Shown: piece by piece, positions 10,530 through 45,946 of the stretch
Layout: each line of letters opens with the position of its first letter
Position numbering within the stretch: the stretch's first letter is position 1
Assembly: GCA_030690165.1 (NCBI GenBank)
Contig: JAUYHF010000044.1
Span: 1 to 45,946 of the forward strand
Length of the DNA: 45,946 bases
Reading direction: 5' to 3'
Origin: Deltaproteobacteria bacterium
Lineage (GTDB): Bacteria > Desulfobacterota > GWC2-55-46 > UBA9637
The notes under the pieces: model-generated
The model's input: the letters and a program-made list of their open reading frames with translations, nothing else
Database searches by the model: none
What the model was told of the DNA's origin: nothing
Translations under genes and position numbers: made by a program

Positions 10530-10937
10530 ATGACGAGATCAAGAAAGATAGTTGTAGGCATAGTATTAGTAATTCTACTGTGCGGAGCATTTATGGCTGG
10601 TGGTTTCATTGGATTTAACAACGGTTACGCATTTCGCGTCTTTCAAGCTTCAGTCGCAGAGTCCTATTTCACCATGAGAACACTTGAGTTGCTAAACGCT
10701 GGAGACCTCGCAGAGGCTAAAAAATACCTTGAGAGTGAGCTTGATAGCCATATCATTGAACATTGGAGCGGTCTGATCAACAAGCCTTTGAACTTTACTA
10801 TGCTCTCACAAAACGACGAAGCAATAAATCGACTCATGTCTAAGGTTGTGGCCTATAGAACAATCAATCCTCGTAAAATAGACGATGCAAAAGTTAAAGA
10901 GACTATTGAAACAGTTGTTAATCGATATAAAAAATAG
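10530..10937 (+). CDS. Cassette-borne membrane-anchored protein of unknown function
   Basis: A 135-aa protein with one N-terminal transmembrane segment (residues about 7-27, IVVGIVLVILLCGAFMAG) and a helical, probably periplasmic remainder. I do not recognise the family. gcgaggg precedes ATG 10530. Five bases after its stop begins an attC-like hairpin, and a GTTAGCC core lies 32 bases upstream, so the gene looks like the cargo of one integron-type cassette of about 0.5 kb. Confidence 0.6.
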   Translation: MTRSRKIVVGIVLVILLCGAFMAGGFIGFNNGYAFRVFQASVAESYFTMRTLELLNAGDLAEAKKYLESELDSHIIEHWSGLINKPLNFTMLSQNDEAINRLMSKVVAYRTINPRKIDDAKVKETIETVVNRYKK

Positions 10938-10941
10938 GGTT

Positions 10942-11002
10942 TGTTAACGAGTCGTTCCACGCCGACCGCAAAAAGCGCGGCGGCTGATTTCTGGCGTTAA
11001 GC
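10942..11002 (+). repeat. attC-like integron recombination site
   Basis: It runs from TGTTAAC (R''-like) to GTTAAGC (R', GTTRRRY), 61 bases. Outer arms TTAACG/CGTTAA and inner arms GCCG-CCGC/GCGGCGGC enclose an AAAAAGC loop; the inner left arm has one unpaired A, a hallmark of attC folding. Layout and GAGTCGTTCCACGCCGA-type sequence resemble attC sites of environmental integrons. It follows the 10530 gene and precedes lysA. Confidence 0.75.
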
Positions 11003-11050
11003 CGTCTTTTCCATCATCCCATATATTTTTAACAGGAGGAATCACAAGAA

Positions 11051-12298
11051 ATGCACTTTTTCACCTACAAGAAAAATAAATTTTACGCCGAAGGCGTGGC
11101 CGTAGAAAAGATCGCAAGGGAAGTCGGAACGCCGTGCTATATCTACAGCCATAAAACCCTCATAAGGCACTACACGGCCTTTGATGAGGCGTTTAAAACT
11201 GTGCCGCATCTTATCTGCTATTCGGTAAAGGCCAATTCAAATATTGCGGTGCTGAAAACATTTATAAAAGAGGGGAGCGGCGTTGATATTGTTTCAGGCG
11301 GCGAGCTTTTCAGGGCATTGAAGGCTGGCGCAGATCCAAAAAAGATTGTCTATTCCGGGGTCGGCAAGAAAGAGGATGAGATTGAATATGCGCTTAAAAC
11401 AGGGATTCTTATGTTCAATGTTGAATCGCCTGAGGAACTGCGGGCAATCAACAAGATTGCAGGCAGGCTGAAAAAAAAGGCGGGTTTTGCCATACGGGTA
11501 AATCCTAATGTTGATCCCAAGACGCATCCGTATATTTCAACAGGGCTTAAGAAAAATAAATTTGGCATAGAGACCGAGCAGGCGATTCAGGAATATATTT
11601 ACGCCAGGAACAATCTGAGAAATCTTACCCCTGTTGGTGTTGACTGCCACATCGGTTCGCAGATTACGCAGCTTTCTCCGTTTGTTGATGCGCTTAAAAA
11701 AACAAAGGAGATTATTAACATTCTTCGGAGGCATGGGATTGATATTAAATATCTGGATATAGGCGGCGGCCTTGGAATTACCTACAAAGATGAGGATGCC
11801 CCGCATCCGAGTAAGTATGGCAAGGCTGTTATAGATGAGACAAAAGGGCTTGGAGTAACGCTTATATTTGAGCCGGGCAGGGTGATGGTGGGGAACGCTG
11901 GCATACTTGTAACAAAGGTTTTATATACAAAACAAGGCACAGAGAAAAAATTTATCATTGTTGACGCTGCTATGAACGACCTTGCAAGGCCGAGCCTCTA
12001 CGGGTCTTATCATGTCATAAAACCTATAAAGAAGAACGACTCTGCAAAAGAGATTATCGCTGATGTAGTTGGCCCAATCTGTGAATCCGGCGATTTTTTT
12101 GCAAAGGACAGGGAACTACCTGAATTCAAAGCAGGCGACCTTATGGCAATAATGAGCGCGGGGGCATATGGTTTCTCCATGTCCAGCAATTACAACTCGA
12201 GGCCGAGGGTTAGTGAGGTTATGGTAAAGGGAAATAAATTTAAGATAATCAGGCAGAGAGAATCCTATAAAGACTTAGTAAAAGGAGAGGAGATATAA
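11051..12298 (+). CDS. lysA: Diaminopimelate decarboxylase
   Basis: A 415-aa PLP enzyme of alanine-racemase fold type III that converts meso-diaminopimelate to lysine. The PLP lysine is K60 in LICYSVKANSN. GVDCHIGSQI, YLDIGGGLGI, FEPGRVMVGNAG, PICESGDFFA and the C-terminal SAGAYGFSMSSNYNSRPR complete the family motifs. aggagg precedes ATG 11051 by about 12 bases. It is followed directly by a UbiA-family gene whose ribosome site lies in the last codons of lysA. Confidence 0.97.
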   Translation: MHFFTYKKNKFYAEGVAVEKIAREVGTPCYIYSHKTLIRHYTAFDEAFKTVPHLICYSVKANSNIAVLKTFIKEGSGVDIVSGGELFRALKAGADPKKIVYSGVGKKEDEIEYALKTGILMFNVESPEELRAINKIAGRLKKKAGFAIRVNPNVDPKTHPYISTGLKKNKFGIETEQAIQEYIYARNNLRNLTPVGVDCHIGSQITQLSPFVDALKKTKEIINILRRHGIDIKYLDIGGGLGITYKDEDAPHPSKYGKAVIDETKGLGVTLIFEPGRVMVGNAGILVTKVLYTKQGTEKKFIIVDAAMNDLARPSLYGSYHVIKPIKKNDSAKEIIADVVGPICESGDFFAKDRELPEFKAGDLMAIMSAGAYGFSMSSNYNSRPRVSEVMVKGNKFKIIRQRESYKDLVKGEEI

Positions 12299-41142: not shown

Positions 41143-41367
41143 ATGACAAGTGCAACGCAAACTATTTTTGAGCAGGCGCTTCGCCTCAACCCGGTAGAAC
41201 GAGCGGAACTAATCGACGAACTCTTTCACAGCTTTGATAAAAGCCATGATGAGCGGATTGATGCTCTCTGGGCCGTTGAGTCAGAGTCAAGAATTGATGC
41301 ATTCGATGCTGGACAGATAAGTGCCGATTCCGCTGAGGCTGTATTTGAGCGGATAAGCAAACGATGA
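41143..41367 (+). CDS. Addiction-module antitoxin (TIGR02574-like)
   Basis: A 74-aa protein: FEQALRLNPVERAELIDELFHSF, then RIDALWAVESESRIDAFDAGQI. This is the helical antitoxin type paired with ParE/RelE toxins. ggaggtgtaatc precedes ATG 41143. It overlaps the toxin start by four bases. Its sequence differs enough from the 9920 antitoxin to be an independent acquisition. Confidence 0.85.
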   Translation: MTSATQTIFEQALRLNPVERAELIDELFHSFDKSHDERIDALWAVESESRIDAFDAGQISADSAEAVFERISKR

Positions 41368-41669
41368 AAATCCGTGTTCTCTCCTGCGCAGAACAAGAAT
41401 TAGCAGAGACCGTCGACTACTATAACGAACAGTGTCCCGGACTTGGCTATGAATTCGCGGCAGAGGTTAAGAACACATTTTATCGCATTAAATCCTTTCC
41501 TGAAGCATGGCCCCTTATATCCAGCCGCTCAAGACGCTGTATTACCAATAGATTCCCTTATGGAGTTTTGTACCATTTCAGGCAGGAGTTTATCCTTGTC
41601 TCTGCAATAATGCACTTAAAACGTGATCCGAAAAAGTGGCAGGAACGAATAAAGAAAACGCTCAGATAA
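41364..41669 (+). CDS. ParE/RelE-family toxin
   Basis: A 101-aa protein: VLSCAEQELAETVDYYNEQCPGLGYEF, IKSFPEAWPLIS, RRCITNRFPYGVLYHFRQ and IMHLKRDPKKW. The RRFPY-x-Y strand and the final H-x-x-R-x-P-x-x-W are characteristic of this toxin group. The TAA stop (41667-41669) lies within the attC R'' core. Confidence 0.88.
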   Translation: MKIRVLSCAEQELAETVDYYNEQCPGLGYEFAAEVKNTFYRIKSFPEAWPLISSRSRRCITNRFPYGVLYHFRQEFILVSAIMHLKRDPKKWQERIKKTLR

Positions 41670-41781: not shown

Positions 41782-43152
41782 TTAATGTTTTTTTGTTGCA
41801 TTAACGGCCTTTATCTCAATTGGCGATGAGGGGTTATTGCTGATTGGTATTGTAAACCTAAAAATAGTTCCTTTTCCCAATTCGCTTTCTATTGAAATAT
41901 TGCCTCCGTGCCTCTCAATAATATATTTTGCCAGAGAAAGGCCCAGGCCTGTGCCTTTTGTTGTTTTTGCAACATTGCCGGCCCTGAAAAATTCCTCAAA
42001 CATGTGCGGCATATCCTCTGCCGGTATGCCTATCCCCGTATCTTTTACCTCAACAATAATAAAACCATCGCTTTGTGAAACTTTTACCAGAACATTTCCG
42101 CCCGACGGTGTATATTTGAAGGCATTGGCAATAAGGTTTGCAAGGACATGGATTATCAGTTCTTTGTCCGCTTCTATTTCCGATGTCTCCTCATCAACTG
42201 CAACTTTTAATTCTATCTGTTTTTCTCCTATTTTAGGCAGCACTATTTCAGCGGCAGTATATATCAGATCTTTGATATTCAATCTCTGAAGATTGAGATT
42301 TCTCTCTGCCCTGATTCTGGATAGATCAAGAAGGTCTTTTGTATAATGATGGAGAAACTCTGTTTTTTTATAAATCCTCTGCAAAATCTCTTTTGTCTTT
42401 TCATCAGCAACTCCGGCAAATCCGCCAAGTATAACCTCCAAAAGGCTCTGGATAGAGGCGAGGGGGGATTTTAAATCGTGGCTGACCATCTTTACATATT
42501 CGTCTTTCTGTCTGTCTTTTTCCAACAGTTTCAGGGCGATCTCTTTTAACTCATTTTCCTTAAGCCGGAGTCTTTCTGATACAGATGCGGTGAAGAAGGT
42601 GGCAATAAAGATGGTGGATGAAAATACAAATGATATGGCTGTCAGATATGCAGAGTTTTTATAAATATCTGTATTCAGAAATCCTCTTACAGGGTAATGA
42701 GGCATGGCATCCAGATACTCAAATATAAAAAGCCCAACTACCAGAAAACAAATAATGCCTGCCTGAATATAGCTTTCCTTTTTTGAAAGGAGCATGCTTG
42801 TAAATATGGTGTGAAATATAAAATAGAATATAAAAGGGTTTTCAGCGCCGCCTGTAAAATGGATAAGGATGGTCAGGCTGATTATATCCAGCATACTCTG
42901 GATAATTGCAAACCTTCTAATGTTAGCGGTTGAAGGGGTTTTATGTTTTAAATAAAGCTTAAACCCTGCATTATAAATAGCGATAAATAATGCGAGCAAG
43001 AAGATAATCCTGGCAGGGAGGATAATCTTAAACAGGTTTAGGGCAGTTAGAAATAAGAGAATGATAAAAACTATTGCGGCCCATCTTATATAGATGAACC
43101 ACTCAAGTCTTTGTAAAAGCTCCTCTTCCAGCAGGTTAGTTGTTTGCTTCAC
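41782..43152 (-). CDS. Membrane sensor histidine kinase
   Basis: A 456-aa kinase. About six hydrophobic segments lie in residues 18-195. HisKA has YVKMVSHDLKSPLASIQSLLE (phosphoacceptor His). HATPase has HVLANLIANAFKYTPSGGN (N box), VKDTGIGIPAEDM, GTGLGLSLAKYIIERHGG. No PAS or periplasmic sensing domain is evident, so the signal probably enters through the membrane part. It overlaps the upstream response regulator by four bases and lies third in a hydrogenase-regulator-kinase run. Confidence 0.92.
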   Translation of the reverse strand: MKQTTNLLEEELLQRLEWFIYIRWAAIVFIILLFLTALNLFKIILPARIIFLLALFIAIYNAGFKLYLKHKTPSTANIRRFAIIQSMLDIISLTILIHFTGGAENPFIFYFIFHTIFTSMLLSKKESYIQAGIICFLVVGLFIFEYLDAMPHYPVRGFLNTDIYKNSAYLTAISFVFSSTIFIATFFTASVSERLRLKENELKEIALKLLEKDRQKDEYVKMVSHDLKSPLASIQSLLEVILGGFAGVADEKTKEILQRIYKKTEFLHHYTKDLLDLSRIRAERNLNLQRLNIKDLIYTAAEIVLPKIGEKQIELKVAVDEETSEIEADKELIIHVLANLIANAFKYTPSGGNVLVKVSQSDGFIIVEVKDTGIGIPAEDMPHMFEEFFRAGNVAKTTKGTGLGLSLAKYIIERHGGNISIESELGKGTIFRFTIPISNNPSSPIEIKAVNATKKH

Positions 43153-43535
43153 TTTTGTTTAAGAAGTTTCTCAATTTTTACGAGCAAGTCCTTGGGTTTT
43201 ATGGGTTTTTCAATAAATTCTTCAACGGGCAGATAGTCTGCATCGGTTTCTTTATTGAATCTGAAGCCGGTCTCCCTTCCCACTGAGGTGAGCATTAGAA
43301 TTGGTATCTTTGAAAGTTCCGGGTTGTTTTTTAATTTATAGCTTATCTGAAACCCCTGATCCTTTGTCTTCATCATCACATCAAGTATTACAAGGTCAGG
43401 TCTTTCCGCTTCAGCCTTTTTATAGCCTGCATCGCCTTCATTGGCGGTTATAACAGCGTAACCTTTGCTCCCAAGCACTATCTTTACTGCCTCTACTATA
43501 TCTGCATCATCGTCAATGATTAAGATTTTTGCCAT
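43149..43535 (-). CDS. Single-domain response regulator
   Basis: A 128-aa REC-only protein: ILIIDDDADIVEAVKIV (acidic pair), LVILDVMMKTKDQG (phosphoacceptor Asp), ILMLTSVG and FIEKPIKPKDLL (conserved Lys). No output domain follows, so it signals by protein contact or as a phosphorelay step. It is translationally coupled to the kinase and starts 9 bases after the hydrogenase stop. Confidence 0.92.
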   Translation of the reverse strand: MAKILIIDDDADIVEAVKIVLGSKGYAVITANEGDAGYKKAEAERPDLVILDVMMKTKDQGFQISYKLKNNPELSKIPILMLTSVGRETGFRFNKETDADYLPVEEFIEKPIKPKDLLVKIEKLLKQK

Positions 43536-43544
43536 AAAGCCTCC

Positions 43545-44834
43545 TCATACAAACCTTACATCCATTATATGCGTGGAGCAGGATATGCATGGATCGTATG
43601 CCCTTACAAGGGATTCTACGCCCCTTGTTATTTCCTCTTTGGGTCTATTAAGGATTGTCGGGATGAAGTTTCTTAAATCATCTTCTATGATAGCAAGGTT
43701 TTGGGCTGTTGGGATAATGCAGTTTGCGTCTTCTACAATCCCGTTCTTGCTGATTGTGTATTCATGATAGAGAGAGCCTCTCGGCGCCTCAACAACGGCT
43801 GCGCCCCTGCCGTATTTTTTTGGTTTTTTTAATTCCTCTTTTTTGAGGCTGCCTGACAGGAGTTTATCAATTATCTTTATTGCATCCTCTGCGCAATGGA
43901 ATGTTTCAACAAGTTGCGCGATATTGTTCATAAACGGGTTGTGTGTATCCGGCGCAAGGCCGAGTTCTTTGGCTGCCTTCTTTGCCGCAGGGGAGAGTTT
44001 CGTGAAATTGTTGCACACCCTTGCAAGTGCGCCAACCATGAAGATACCTTTTCTGCTTCTGGCATGTTTTGCAGTGGATTGCGGGACGATGTTTTCCTTT
44101 ATGACCTTCCTGTAATCGCCGGGTTTTGCAGTGTATTTTTGGCTGGACGATATATTTCCGCTGTAGAATGCGTATCCGCCGTCTTCCTTAAGCGAGATAT
44201 ATTCCCTTTTTTTGGAATATTGAGGGACATTAAAGGTTTTAAACATCTCAAGGGTTGCATTCAGGTCTTCAAATGATTCCTCAAGCCCTTTCTTTAATTC
44301 TTTCAACTCGCCCTTTTTCGGGATATGCGCAACCCCGCCTGGGAAGAATGATATGGGGTGTATGTGCCTTCCTGCAATAACCTCGCATATTTTATTGGCA
44401 AGTTTTTTAAGCCTAAGGCCGCGCGCCACTATTTCAGGATGGCTTTTGGCAAGAGGGACTATGCTTCCTGCATTGAAGAAGTCCGGCAATATCAGGAAAT
44501 AGAGGTGGAGTATATGGCTCTGGATGGTTTCGCCGTGGAACGCAAGTTTTCTTAAAAGCGCCGACTGGTTTGTTATGGCAATGCCCATGGCAGATTCAAT
44601 CGCCTTTACTGAGGCGAGGGTATGGCTTACAGCGCATATCCCGCAGATTCTGGACATAATGTGCTGCGCCTCGTCATACCTCCTTCCCCTGAGCATTGCC
44701 TCATAAAACCGCGGCGATTCTATAATATCAAAACGGAGTTCTTTTATTACGCCCTTTTTTATGTCTATTACAATATTGCCGTGTCCCTCAACCCGTGTAA
44801 TATGGTTTATGTTTATATTTATGTTTTTATGCAT
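43545..44834 (-). CDS. [NiFe]-hydrogenase large subunit (group 3-like)
   Basis: A 429-aa catalytic subunit. HITRVEGHGNIVIDI starts the fold; L1 has RICGIC (C64, C67) and L2 has DPCISCSTH (C416, C419, H422), giving all four Ni-Fe cysteines. Seven residues (IMDVRFV) after H422 form the expected cleavable tail. It resembles MvhA/sulfhydrogenase-type subunits. No small subunit lies beside it: upstream is a divergent unrelated gene and downstream come a response regulator and a kinase. GAGG before ATG 44834 supports that start; GTG 44858 is possible. Maturation would need HypC (13.2 kb) and others. Confidence 0.9.
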   Translation of the reverse strand: MHKNINININHITRVEGHGNIVIDIKKGVIKELRFDIIESPRFYEAMLRGRRYDEAQHIMSRICGICAVSHTLASVKAIESAMGIAITNQSALLRKLAFHGETIQSHILHLYFLILPDFFNAGSIVPLAKSHPEIVARGLRLKKLANKICEVIAGRHIHPISFFPGGVAHIPKKGELKELKKGLEESFEDLNATLEMFKTFNVPQYSKKREYISLKEDGGYAFYSGNISSSQKYTAKPGDYRKVIKENIVPQSTAKHARSRKGIFMVGALARVCNNFTKLSPAAKKAAKELGLAPDTHNPFMNNIAQLVETFHCAEDAIKIIDKLLSGSLKKEELKKPKKYGRGAAVVEAPRGSLYHEYTISKNGIVEDANCIIPTAQNLAIIEDDLRNFIPTILNRPKEEITRGVESLVRAYDPCISCSTHIMDVRFV

Positions 44835-44936
44835 ATCGTTATCCTCGCCTTCCGTCACATTTTTATTTTCATAGAATTATACTATCAGATTTGATAACAT
44901 TATTTACAATAAATATTTGTTAAAAGGAGAACTGTG

Positions 44937-45428
44937 ATGAGAAAATACATTATTCCCATTTTTATGATAGTATTTTTCCCTGCTTTTATCAATGTTCGGG
45001 CGCAGCATCTGGAAGAAAAGACAGACGCTGGAAAGGCAAAATTTACAAAACATTTCAATGAAAGCCTTTTCAGGATTACAGAGAAGGAAGAGTTCAGCGT
45101 TGAGGTTCTGCTTGATGATAAGGAGTACAAAATAGGCAAGGGTGTGATTGGCATTGTAGTCCACGATAAAAATGACAATGATGTTAAATTTGCCGACATA
45201 AAAATCAGCTATCAAGACATGAAGGAATCCCCTGTCGTAATAGAAAAGGGACACGGGGTTTATGTAGTCTCAAACCTTAATATTAAGAGAGAAGGGAAAT
45301 GGGAGCTCAACATAAAAGTGAAACAGTACAGAAAAGTAGACAAGACAACATTTATATTTCCGGATGTCTTGAACAAACCTCTGCCTGCAGGCGAATATAA
45401 TTTGGATACAGCCGGCAAAACTAAATAA
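44937..45428 (+). CDS. Secreted FixH/YtkA-like domain protein
   Basis: A 163-aa protein with a signal peptide (MRKYIIPIFMIVFFPAFINVRA). The mature part looks like a FixH/YtkA-like beta-sandwich: EEFSVEVLLDDKEYKIGKGVIGIVVHDKNDNDV, ending GHGVYVVSNLNIKREGKWELNIKVK. The G-x-Y...G-x-W-x-L pattern fits periplasmic domains linked to metal or redox functions. ATG 44937 has AAGGAG seven bases upstream. It is divergent from the hydrogenase gene, sharing a 100-base promoter region. Confidence 0.65.
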   Translation: MRKYIIPIFMIVFFPAFINVRAQHLEEKTDAGKAKFTKHFNESLFRITEKEEFSVEVLLDDKEYKIGKGVIGIVVHDKNDNDVKFADIKISYQDMKESPVVIEKGHGVYVVSNLNIKREGKWELNIKVKQYRKVDKTTFIFPDVLNKPLPAGEYNLDTAGKTK

Positions 45429-45511: not shown

Positions 45512-45807
45512 TCAACGTATTACTTTCTTCACATTCTCGATCGCCTTATCATAATCAGGATGGTTTGACATTTCAGGCACAATCTCAACATATTTGATTA
45601 GATTATTTTTATCAATAATAAATATGGAACGCGCAAGTAGCCTCAATTCTTTGACTAAAACGCCATAAGCAGCGCCGAAACTTGCATCCCTGTGGTCGGA
45701 TAATGTCTGAACCTTGTCTATGCCTGCTGTGGAGCAGAACCTGGAAATGGCAAAGGGAAGATCCATACTGATGTTCATCAACACTATATCTTCCGACAGC
45801 TTTCCAG
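45512..45807 (-). pseudogene. tpx: Thiol peroxidase, 5' truncated by an IS element
   Basis: Reads LSEDIVLMNISMDLPFAISR, FCSTAGIDKVQTLSDHRDASFG, VKELRLLARSIFIIDKNN and VEIVPEMSNHPDYDKAI: the C-terminal two thirds of Tpx, including the resolving Cys (RFC). The N-terminal part with the peroxidatic Cys is missing; it is replaced at 45808 by transposon sequence. It cannot be active as it stands. Confidence 0.87.
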
Positions 45808-45946
45808 TGGACTTCCCCCGAATTTAAGGACACTAAGTTAGGTTAGGCTACCATAGATTCGAGCTCATAAGATACTGGAGAAAGATACCCCAGTGTTGAG
45901 TGACGTCTCTTTCGATTATAGAATATTTCAATATAATTAAAAATAC
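45808..45946 (-). mobile_element. IS3-family insertion sequence, end (partial)
   Basis: The element edge begins TGGACTTCCCCCGAATTTAA at 45808 (IS3-type TG end), inside tpx. It includes the transposase C-terminus and continues past the window. The left end and any target duplication are not visible. Confidence 0.8.
45843..45946 (-). CDS. IS3-family transposase (OrfB), C-terminal end (partial)
   Basis: The frame reads [20 protein letters not shown] followed by [10 protein letters not shown] and a TAA at 45845-45843. The YN-x-x-R-x-H-x-x-LGYLSP motif is diagnostic of the DDE integrase of IS3-type elements (catalytic E just upstream of the window edge). Its remaining sequence is outside the window. 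Confidence 0.9.

What the first reader, a model, noticed from the sequence alone, without database searches (positions are those of the whole stretch)
41782..44834. [NiFe]-hydrogenase large subunit without small subunit, followed by regulator and kinase
All four active-site cysteines and a cleavable tail are present, but no small or accessory subunit adjoins. The gene leads a tight run with a REC-only regulator (9-base gap) and a membrane kinase (4-base overlap). It may be part of a split hydrogenase, or an H2-responsive signalling unit unlike HupUV/HoxBC.
Basis: partly seen in the sequence, partly recalled or inferred. Interest (0 to 1): 0.6.

Follow-up and report, generated by a model that had tools for sequence, protein, structure and literature searches.

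The report
Hydrogenase operon with linked redox two-component pair
The gene is the catalytic subunit of a complete, ordinary hydrogen/NAD(P)H enzyme whose partner subunit was hidden by a transposon-caused gap in the assembly; the interesting part is that the sensor kinase and single-domain regulator behind it belong to a pair that accompanies such hydrogenases in many bacterial phyla, a link I did not find described.

Summary
The large subunit (43545-44834, -) is the alpha subunit of a group 3b NAD(P)-coupled [NiFe]-hydrogenase. Its small subunit exists. The window is a whole contig that ends inside an IS3-family element inserted in tpx; the other half of tpx lies at the end of contig C9, just after a group 3b small subunit in the same orientation. 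Joining the flanks gives a 3-bp target duplication and an intact tpx frame. Without the IS, small and large subunit genes lie 1,419 bp apart. Beta/gamma subunits, HypD and a maturation protease are on other contigs.

The large-REC-kinase order is real and conserved: in all family relatives examined and in other families of the class. Beyond that, REC-only regulators of one family and RegB/PilS-like six-helix kinases accompany group 3b hydrogenases in about ten phyla, and hox (3d-like) operons in four genomes of the phylum. The window kinase carries GGAENPF, RegB's quinone-binding heptapeptide. Best reading: a bidirectional hydrogenase wired to a redox-sensing two-component pair; signal and output are inferred. 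HydDB describes no such link for group 3b, nor did the papers I found, apart from one figure legend naming a nearby phoR-type kinase.

The parts
43545..44834 (-). [NiFe]-hydrogenase group 3b large (alpha) subunit, 429 aa (possible GTG start at 44858)
   Evidence: NCBIfam ShyA 299 bits, HydA 272, VhuA 176, FrhA 154 (all below the equivalog cut-offs); best solved relatives are sulfhydrogenase I alpha chains; Ni ligands invariant
43149..43535 (-). Stand-alone receiver (REC) domain, 128 aa
   Evidence: Response_reg 2e-18 and nothing else; phosphorylation-site residues present; conserved next to the large subunit
41782..43152 (-). Membrane sensor histidine kinase with RegB/PilS-like membrane domain and GGAENPF motif at residues 101-107
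   Evidence: HisKA, HATPase_c, 6TM_PilS; ActS/PrrB/RegB profile matches the sensor part below cut-off; motif and hydrophobic segments
44835..44933 (-). Divergent intergenic stretch, the likely place of the promoter of large-REC-kinase
   Evidence: Inference from gene layout; a sigma-70 scan found no more sites than shuffles
44934..45428 (+). YtkA-like protein gene on the opposite strand, between tpx and the large subunit
   Evidence: Pfam YtkA 1e-5; not seen in this place in relatives
45512..45807 (-). 3' part of tpx (thiol peroxidase), interrupted by the IS; its 5' part is on contig C9 (L006 up to 10181)
   Evidence: Only two tpx matches in the genome, one at each contig end; CTG duplication and restored 163-codon frame on joining the flanks
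45808..45946 (-). Right end of an IS3-family element at which the assembly breaks
   Evidence: The same 139 bases recur in full at eight other places of the genome, mostly the first bases of contigs; ends pair with those on C9

Best explanation
SHOWN from sequence: this is the alpha subunit of a complete group 3b cytosolic bidirectional [NiFe]-hydrogenase (H2 <-> NAD(P)H). The delta (small) subunit lies 1.4 kb upstream (contig C9:76967-77731), beta and gamma are on contig C10, HypD on C60 and a maturation protease on C14. The apparent orphan state is caused by an IS3-family element in tpx that broke the assembly. Also shown: the REC and kinase genes are conserved partners of this enzyme, as one REC family and one kinase-sensor type, across the lineage and in many phyla. 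INFERRED: alpha, REC and kinase are co-transcribed; the membrane kinase reads the redox state of the quinone pool through its RegB-like GGxxNPF motif and phosphorylates the stand-alone REC; REC has no DNA-binding domain, so it acts through protein contact, on the hydrogenase or on another signalling protein such as the GAF-diguanylate cyclase that follows the same operon in related families. The pair would thus tie H2 production or uptake to membrane redox balance.
For: Small subunit and IS junction. Beta/gamma. HypD; protease. All four subunits match P. furiosus-type sulfhydrogenase I chains best. hydB-hydG-small-large-REC-kinase contiguous in G008 (L047). Large-REC-kinase kept in all seven other f1 genomes and two of three f2 genomes; sensor domain in 18 of 63 class genomes, all with the hydrogenase. 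68 wide loci: REC downstream 19, kinase 17, just upstream 1 and 0. Linked RECs match the window REC better than any other own-genome REC, 26 of 26. Broad sensor model: 25 genomes at 119 bits or more, all with a group 3 large subunit, against 67 of 122 of the rest. GGXXNPF as RegB quinone site: PMC8191878.
Against: Most wide-sample group 3b loci have no REC or kinase nearby, and family f7 of the same class has lost or never had the pair, so the enzyme does not need it. The kinase lacks RegB's redox cysteine (only C135, in a membrane segment). Outside the class the motif is often GGxxSP rather than GGxxNPF. Adjacency is not proof of function, and no output target of REC is known. The C9-C44 join is inferred, not sequenced.
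Confidence: 0.6

Rival explanations
1. The group 3b hydrogenase is itself the H2 sensor: turnover at the alpha/delta pair changes the kinase through protein contact, as HupUV/HoxBC does with HupT/HoxJ.
For: Conserved gene order; HydDB names kinase-linked [NiFe] groups as H2 sensors (group 2b).
Against: The enzyme has a full NAD(P)H electron-transfer set, as a catalytic hydrogenase does; the kinase has its own membrane sensor domain with a RegB-like motif; the pair also follows hox (3d-like) hydrogenases.
Confidence: 0.12
2. The pair controls transcription: phospho-REC passes the signal to a DNA-binding regulator elsewhere, and the hydrogenase operon is one target among many.
For: RegB-like systems elsewhere are global redox regulators that include hydrogen use (PMC8191878).
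Against: The stand-alone REC has no output domain, and no DNA-binding partner is conserved next to it.
Confidence: 0.2
3. The large subunit is a true orphan or sensor subunit with no partner in this genome, as first proposed.
For: No small subunit in the window; the IS prevents direct assembly of the junction.
Against: The two tpx halves are unique and lie at exactly these two contig ends, with a CTG duplication and a restored frame; the C9 small subunit is 85-90% identical to those upstream of the large subunit in relatives of the same family.
Confidence: 0.03
4. REC and kinase are mere neighbours kept by chance or shared descent, with no functional tie to the hydrogenase.
For: Many group 3b loci lack them; counts are not corrected for relatedness.
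Against: Recurrence in scattered clades of the large-subunit tree, placement also upstream of hydB in Planctomycetota and behind hox genes, and strict co-occurrence of the strong sensor type with group 3 large subunits.
Confidence: 0.1

Closest known systems
Group 3b NAD(P)-coupled [NiFe]-hydrogenase / sulfhydrogenase (Pyrococcus furiosus-type SHI; PDB 9nez, 5yxy)
   Same: All four subunits have this enzyme's chains as best solved relatives; Ni ligands intact
   Different: Genes spread over three places in this genome, and a REC-kinase pair follows the alpha subunit; HydDB names no such link for 3b (PMC5037454)
RegB/RegA (PrrBA, ActSR, RoxSR) redox two-component system
   Same: Hydrophobic membrane domain matching the ActS/PrrB/RegB profile, the GGxxNPF heptapeptide, H-box
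   Different: No redox-box cysteine; the regulator is a bare REC, not RegA with a DNA-binding domain
HupUV-HupT / HoxBC-HoxJ regulatory hydrogenases (group 2b)
   Same: A [NiFe]-hydrogenase with a linked histidine kinase
   Different: Different hydrogenase group, with a diaphorase set; membrane kinase with its own sensor domain; no HupR/HoxA-type regulator next to it
PilS-type kinases
   Same: Same Pfam membrane domain family (PF25323)
   Different: PilS-like copies score 82 bits or less with the hydrogenase-linked sensor model, linked ones 119 or more
Diguanylate cyclase-linked (group 2c) and kinase-linked [FeFe] C1 hydrogenases
   Same: Hydrogenase genes tied to signalling genes; a GAF-diguanylate cyclase follows the large subunit or kinase in relatives
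   Different: Other hydrogenase groups, in HydDB's description (PMC5037454)

Membership tests
Group 3b [NiFe]-hydrogenase | Large subunit closer to group 3b than to 3a, 3c, 3d by profile and solved relatives | tested here: met
   ShyA 299, HydA 272, VhuA 176, FrhA 154 bits; SHI alpha 247, MvhA 205, 5xf9 NAD-reducing hydrogenase 169 bits
Group 3b [NiFe]-hydrogenase | Ni-binding CxxC motifs and C-terminal His with cleavable tail | tested here: met
   RICGIC, DPCISC, H422, tail IMDVRFV; cleavage itself not tested
Group 3b [NiFe]-hydrogenase | Small subunit with SHI-delta-type C-terminal part | tested here: met
   L006:8968-9732 aligned over residues 5-249 to SHI delta; junction to the window inferred
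Group 3b [NiFe]-hydrogenase | HydB (Fer4_22) and HydG (FAD/NAD-binding) partner subunits | tested here: met
   C10 orthologues, 78% and 74% to in-operon copies
Group 3b [NiFe]-hydrogenase | Reversible H2/NAD(P)H activity | not testable with these tools
   Needs enzyme assay
RegB/RegA two-component system | GGXXNPF quinone-binding heptapeptide in the membrane domain | tested here: met
   GGAENPF at 101-107 of the window kinase; definition from PMC8191878
RegB/RegA two-component system | Redox-box cysteine in the cytosolic part of the kinase | tested here: not met
   Single Cys, C135, within a hydrophobic segment; none after it
RegB/RegA two-component system | RegA-type response regulator with DNA-binding domain | tested here: not met
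   128-aa bare receiver
Group 2b regulatory hydrogenase (HupUV/HoxBC) | Group 2b large subunit in a two-subunit sensor without diaphorase | tested here: not met
   Large subunit matches group 3 models best, and diaphorase subunits are in the genome

The most novel reading that the evidence does not exclude
A widespread, old signalling module dedicated to bidirectional group 3b and 3d hydrogenases: a RegB-like quinone-sensing kinase phosphorylates a stand-alone receiver that binds the hydrogenase (or its maturation machinery) and sets its activity or direction after translation, a form of control I know of for no [NiFe]-hydrogenase.
Probability: 0.22. Interest if true: 0.75.

Novelty: new variant of a known kind. 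Interest (0 to 1): 0.5.

Why it matters
Group 3b hydrogenases are common in anaerobic and subsurface microbes, yet what decides whether they make or use H2, and what regulates them, is poorly known (my knowledge). A recurring REC-kinase pair attached to them in many phyla is a ready candidate for that control, and the RegB-like motif makes a specific, testable prediction (quinone redox state as the signal). HydDB lists kinase-linked hydrogenases only as [NiFe] group 2b and [FeFe] group C1 (PMC5037454). For the scan itself, the case shows how an insertion sequence at a contig end can imitate an orphan subunit.

Tried and rejected
1) Orphan or sensor large subunit: rejected by the C9 small subunit and the IS junction. 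2) Small-subunit candidates on C7 and C62: NuoB-type proteins of complex-I-like clusters. 3) A paralogous large subunit elsewhere: none. 5) Promoter/terminator scan: no more than chance. 6) My first REC control run used wrong strands for minus-strand loci; it was redone with the same outcome. 7) Literature: searches for group 3b or hox hydrogenase with histidine kinase, sensor kinase or two-component gave papers in whose searched passages I found no description of the link; one figure legend names a phoR-type kinase near hydrogenases of an actinobacterium (PMC7325909). A 2025 neighbourhood survey lists kinase and REC clusters near [NiFe] large subunits in general, not tied to group 3b in the passages found (PMC12727194). 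Only open-licence papers were searched, and most hits were not read in full. 8) No structure prediction was run; it would not have settled the open questions.

Full report
WHAT IS THERE. The large subunit has both cysteine pairs, the conserved glutamate and arginine, and a seven-residue tail after the last histidine. REC is a bare receiver domain; the kinase has a PilS-like membrane domain, HisKA and HATPase_c.

THE MISSING SMALL SUBUNIT. The window is an entire contig (C44) of a 2.2-Mb, 70-contig genome with a single [NiFe] large subunit. Of three PF01058 proteins, those on C62 and C7 belong to complex-I-like clusters, and the third, C9:76967-77731, is a full-length group 3b small subunit. 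Contig C9 ends 588 bases after it, inside the start of an IS3-family element that interrupts tpx. The window ends in the other end of such an element, next to the rest of tpx. These are the only two tpx matches in the genome. The 139-base IS end recurs in full at eight other places, mostly at the first bases of contigs, which explains the assembly break. Joined without the IS, the flanks share a CTG duplication and give one uninterrupted 163-codon frame. So the order, all in one direction except ytkA, is small subunit - tpx::IS - (ytkA, opposite strand) - large subunit - REC - kinase, with 1,419 bases between small and large subunit genes if the IS is left out. The junction is inferred, not sequenced.

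THE REST OF THE ENZYME. HydB and HydG orthologues lie together on contig C10, 78% and 74% identical to copies that sit upstream of the small subunit in relatives. The best solved relatives of alpha, beta, gamma and delta are the four chains of sulfhydrogenase I. HypD (C60) and a HycI-type protease (C14) are present. The enzyme looks complete and ordinary; what is unusual is the scattering. In G008 (L047) the six genes hydB-hydG-small-large-REC-kinase are contiguous, and L049 and L087 are nearly so; in the class generally small and large are adjacent. In the window's genus the small subunit stands next to a divergent LpxL-like gene instead of hydBG, in the window's genome and in L043.

THE TWO-COMPONENT PAIR. 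Large-REC-kinase is kept in all seven other f1 genomes examined and in two of three f2 genomes; in the third (G010) REC and kinase sit together on another contig (L248). REC+kinase also follow in f4 (L061) and f13 (L085), and the kinase alone or with a broken REC in L052, L054 and L076. Families f7 and f10 mostly have a GAF-diguanylate cyclase in that place, which also follows the kinase in L061, L054 and L249. A diguanylate cyclase orthologue persists elsewhere in the window's genome (C62:71123-71701, 65%). The window-type sensor domain occurs in 18 of 63 class genomes, all with the hydrogenase and nearly always beside it.

BEYOND THE CLASS. In 68 further group 3b loci from many phyla, selected only by their large subunit, REC lies downstream in 19 and this kinase type in 17; just upstream there are 1 and 0. 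Carriers include Chloroflexota, Fidelibacterota, Krumholzibacteriota, Ignavibacteriota, Myxococcota, Armatimonadota, Caldisericota and Scalindua (Planctomycetota), with REC alone in Calditrichota, Fermentibacterota and Spirochaetota and the kinase alone in Omnitrophota. In other Planctomycetota REC and kinase stand upstream of hydB, beyond the range counted as upstream above. On the large-subunit tree the trait is scattered over several clades, so it is old or was recruited repeatedly. All 26 linked RECs have the window REC as best match among 32 own-genome RECs, and the own paralogues fall on a separate starred branch; that set was preselected by a model built from the window's clade, so the test is supportive, not independent. 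A broader sensor model separates strong matches (119 bits or more; 25 genomes, all with a group 3 large subunit) from PilS-like ones (82 or less). Four of the strong matches lie at hox-like loci: hox genes - protease - REC - kinase in L243, L244 and L246, and in L245 with the kinase on the other strand. That these are group 3d was judged from gene order and subunit sizes, not from a classification search.

MECHANISM. The kinase has GGAENPF, the RegB heptapeptide reported to bind ubiquinone (PMC8191878, PMC10525716), between two hydrophobic segments, and the ActS/PrrB/RegB profile matches the sensor part, well below its cut-off. It lacks a RegB-like redox-box cysteine, and the partner has no DNA-binding domain, so by definition it is not a RegB/RegA system, though it may sense in the same way. 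Outside the class the motif is often GGxxSP. I infer that the pair reports membrane redox state and that phospho-REC acts by protein contact on the hydrogenase or on a diguanylate cyclase. None of this has been tested.

LINEAGE. Contig lengths and coordinates identify G002 and G007 with 'Deltaproteobacteria' groundwater MAGs (JACRNJ010000032, JACPZB010000022) and G059 with Deltaproteobacteria bacterium GWA2_54_12 (MGPK01000051). The window comes from an uncultivated relative in the same genus as G002.

LIMITS. ORFs in relatives were called by a simple script; counts are not corrected for relatedness; the 80 wide loci are the best 80 of more matches; adjacency does not prove function.

Noticed in passing
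L243:3237-5648, L244:4375-7022, L246:5022-8957, L245:3113-4966 and 10860-11237: REC and RegB-like kinases of the same types also stand next to hox (group 3d-like) hydrogenase genes in four genomes of the phylum.
   Followed up: partly
window 45808-45946 and C9 end (L006:10182-10320): An IS3-family element with many copies in this genome has broken the tpx gene and causes many of the contig breaks.
   Followed up: yes
L053:10803-11927, L061, L249:1511-2644; own C62:71123-71701: A GAF-diguanylate cyclase follows the large subunit or the kinase in several families of the class, suggesting c-di-GMP output.
   Followed up: partly
L008:1431-8720 (own contig C7): A group 4-like membrane complex whose large-subunit-like protein (551 aa) seems to lack the Ni-binding cysteine pairs, like 'Ehr' hydrogenase-related complexes (from memory).
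   Followed up: no
L043:1-1294, L054:10316-12160: The kinase frame in relative G004 and the REC frame in relative G025 appear broken, by decay or by assembly error.
   Followed up: no
window 41364-41669 (+): A ParE-like toxin gene just downstream of the kinase gene, on the opposite strand.
   Followed up: no
L044:12021-14627: In one relative an MHYT-PAS-GGDEF-EAL protein gene stands between hydG and the small subunit, a further c-di-GMP gene in the operon.
   Followed up: no
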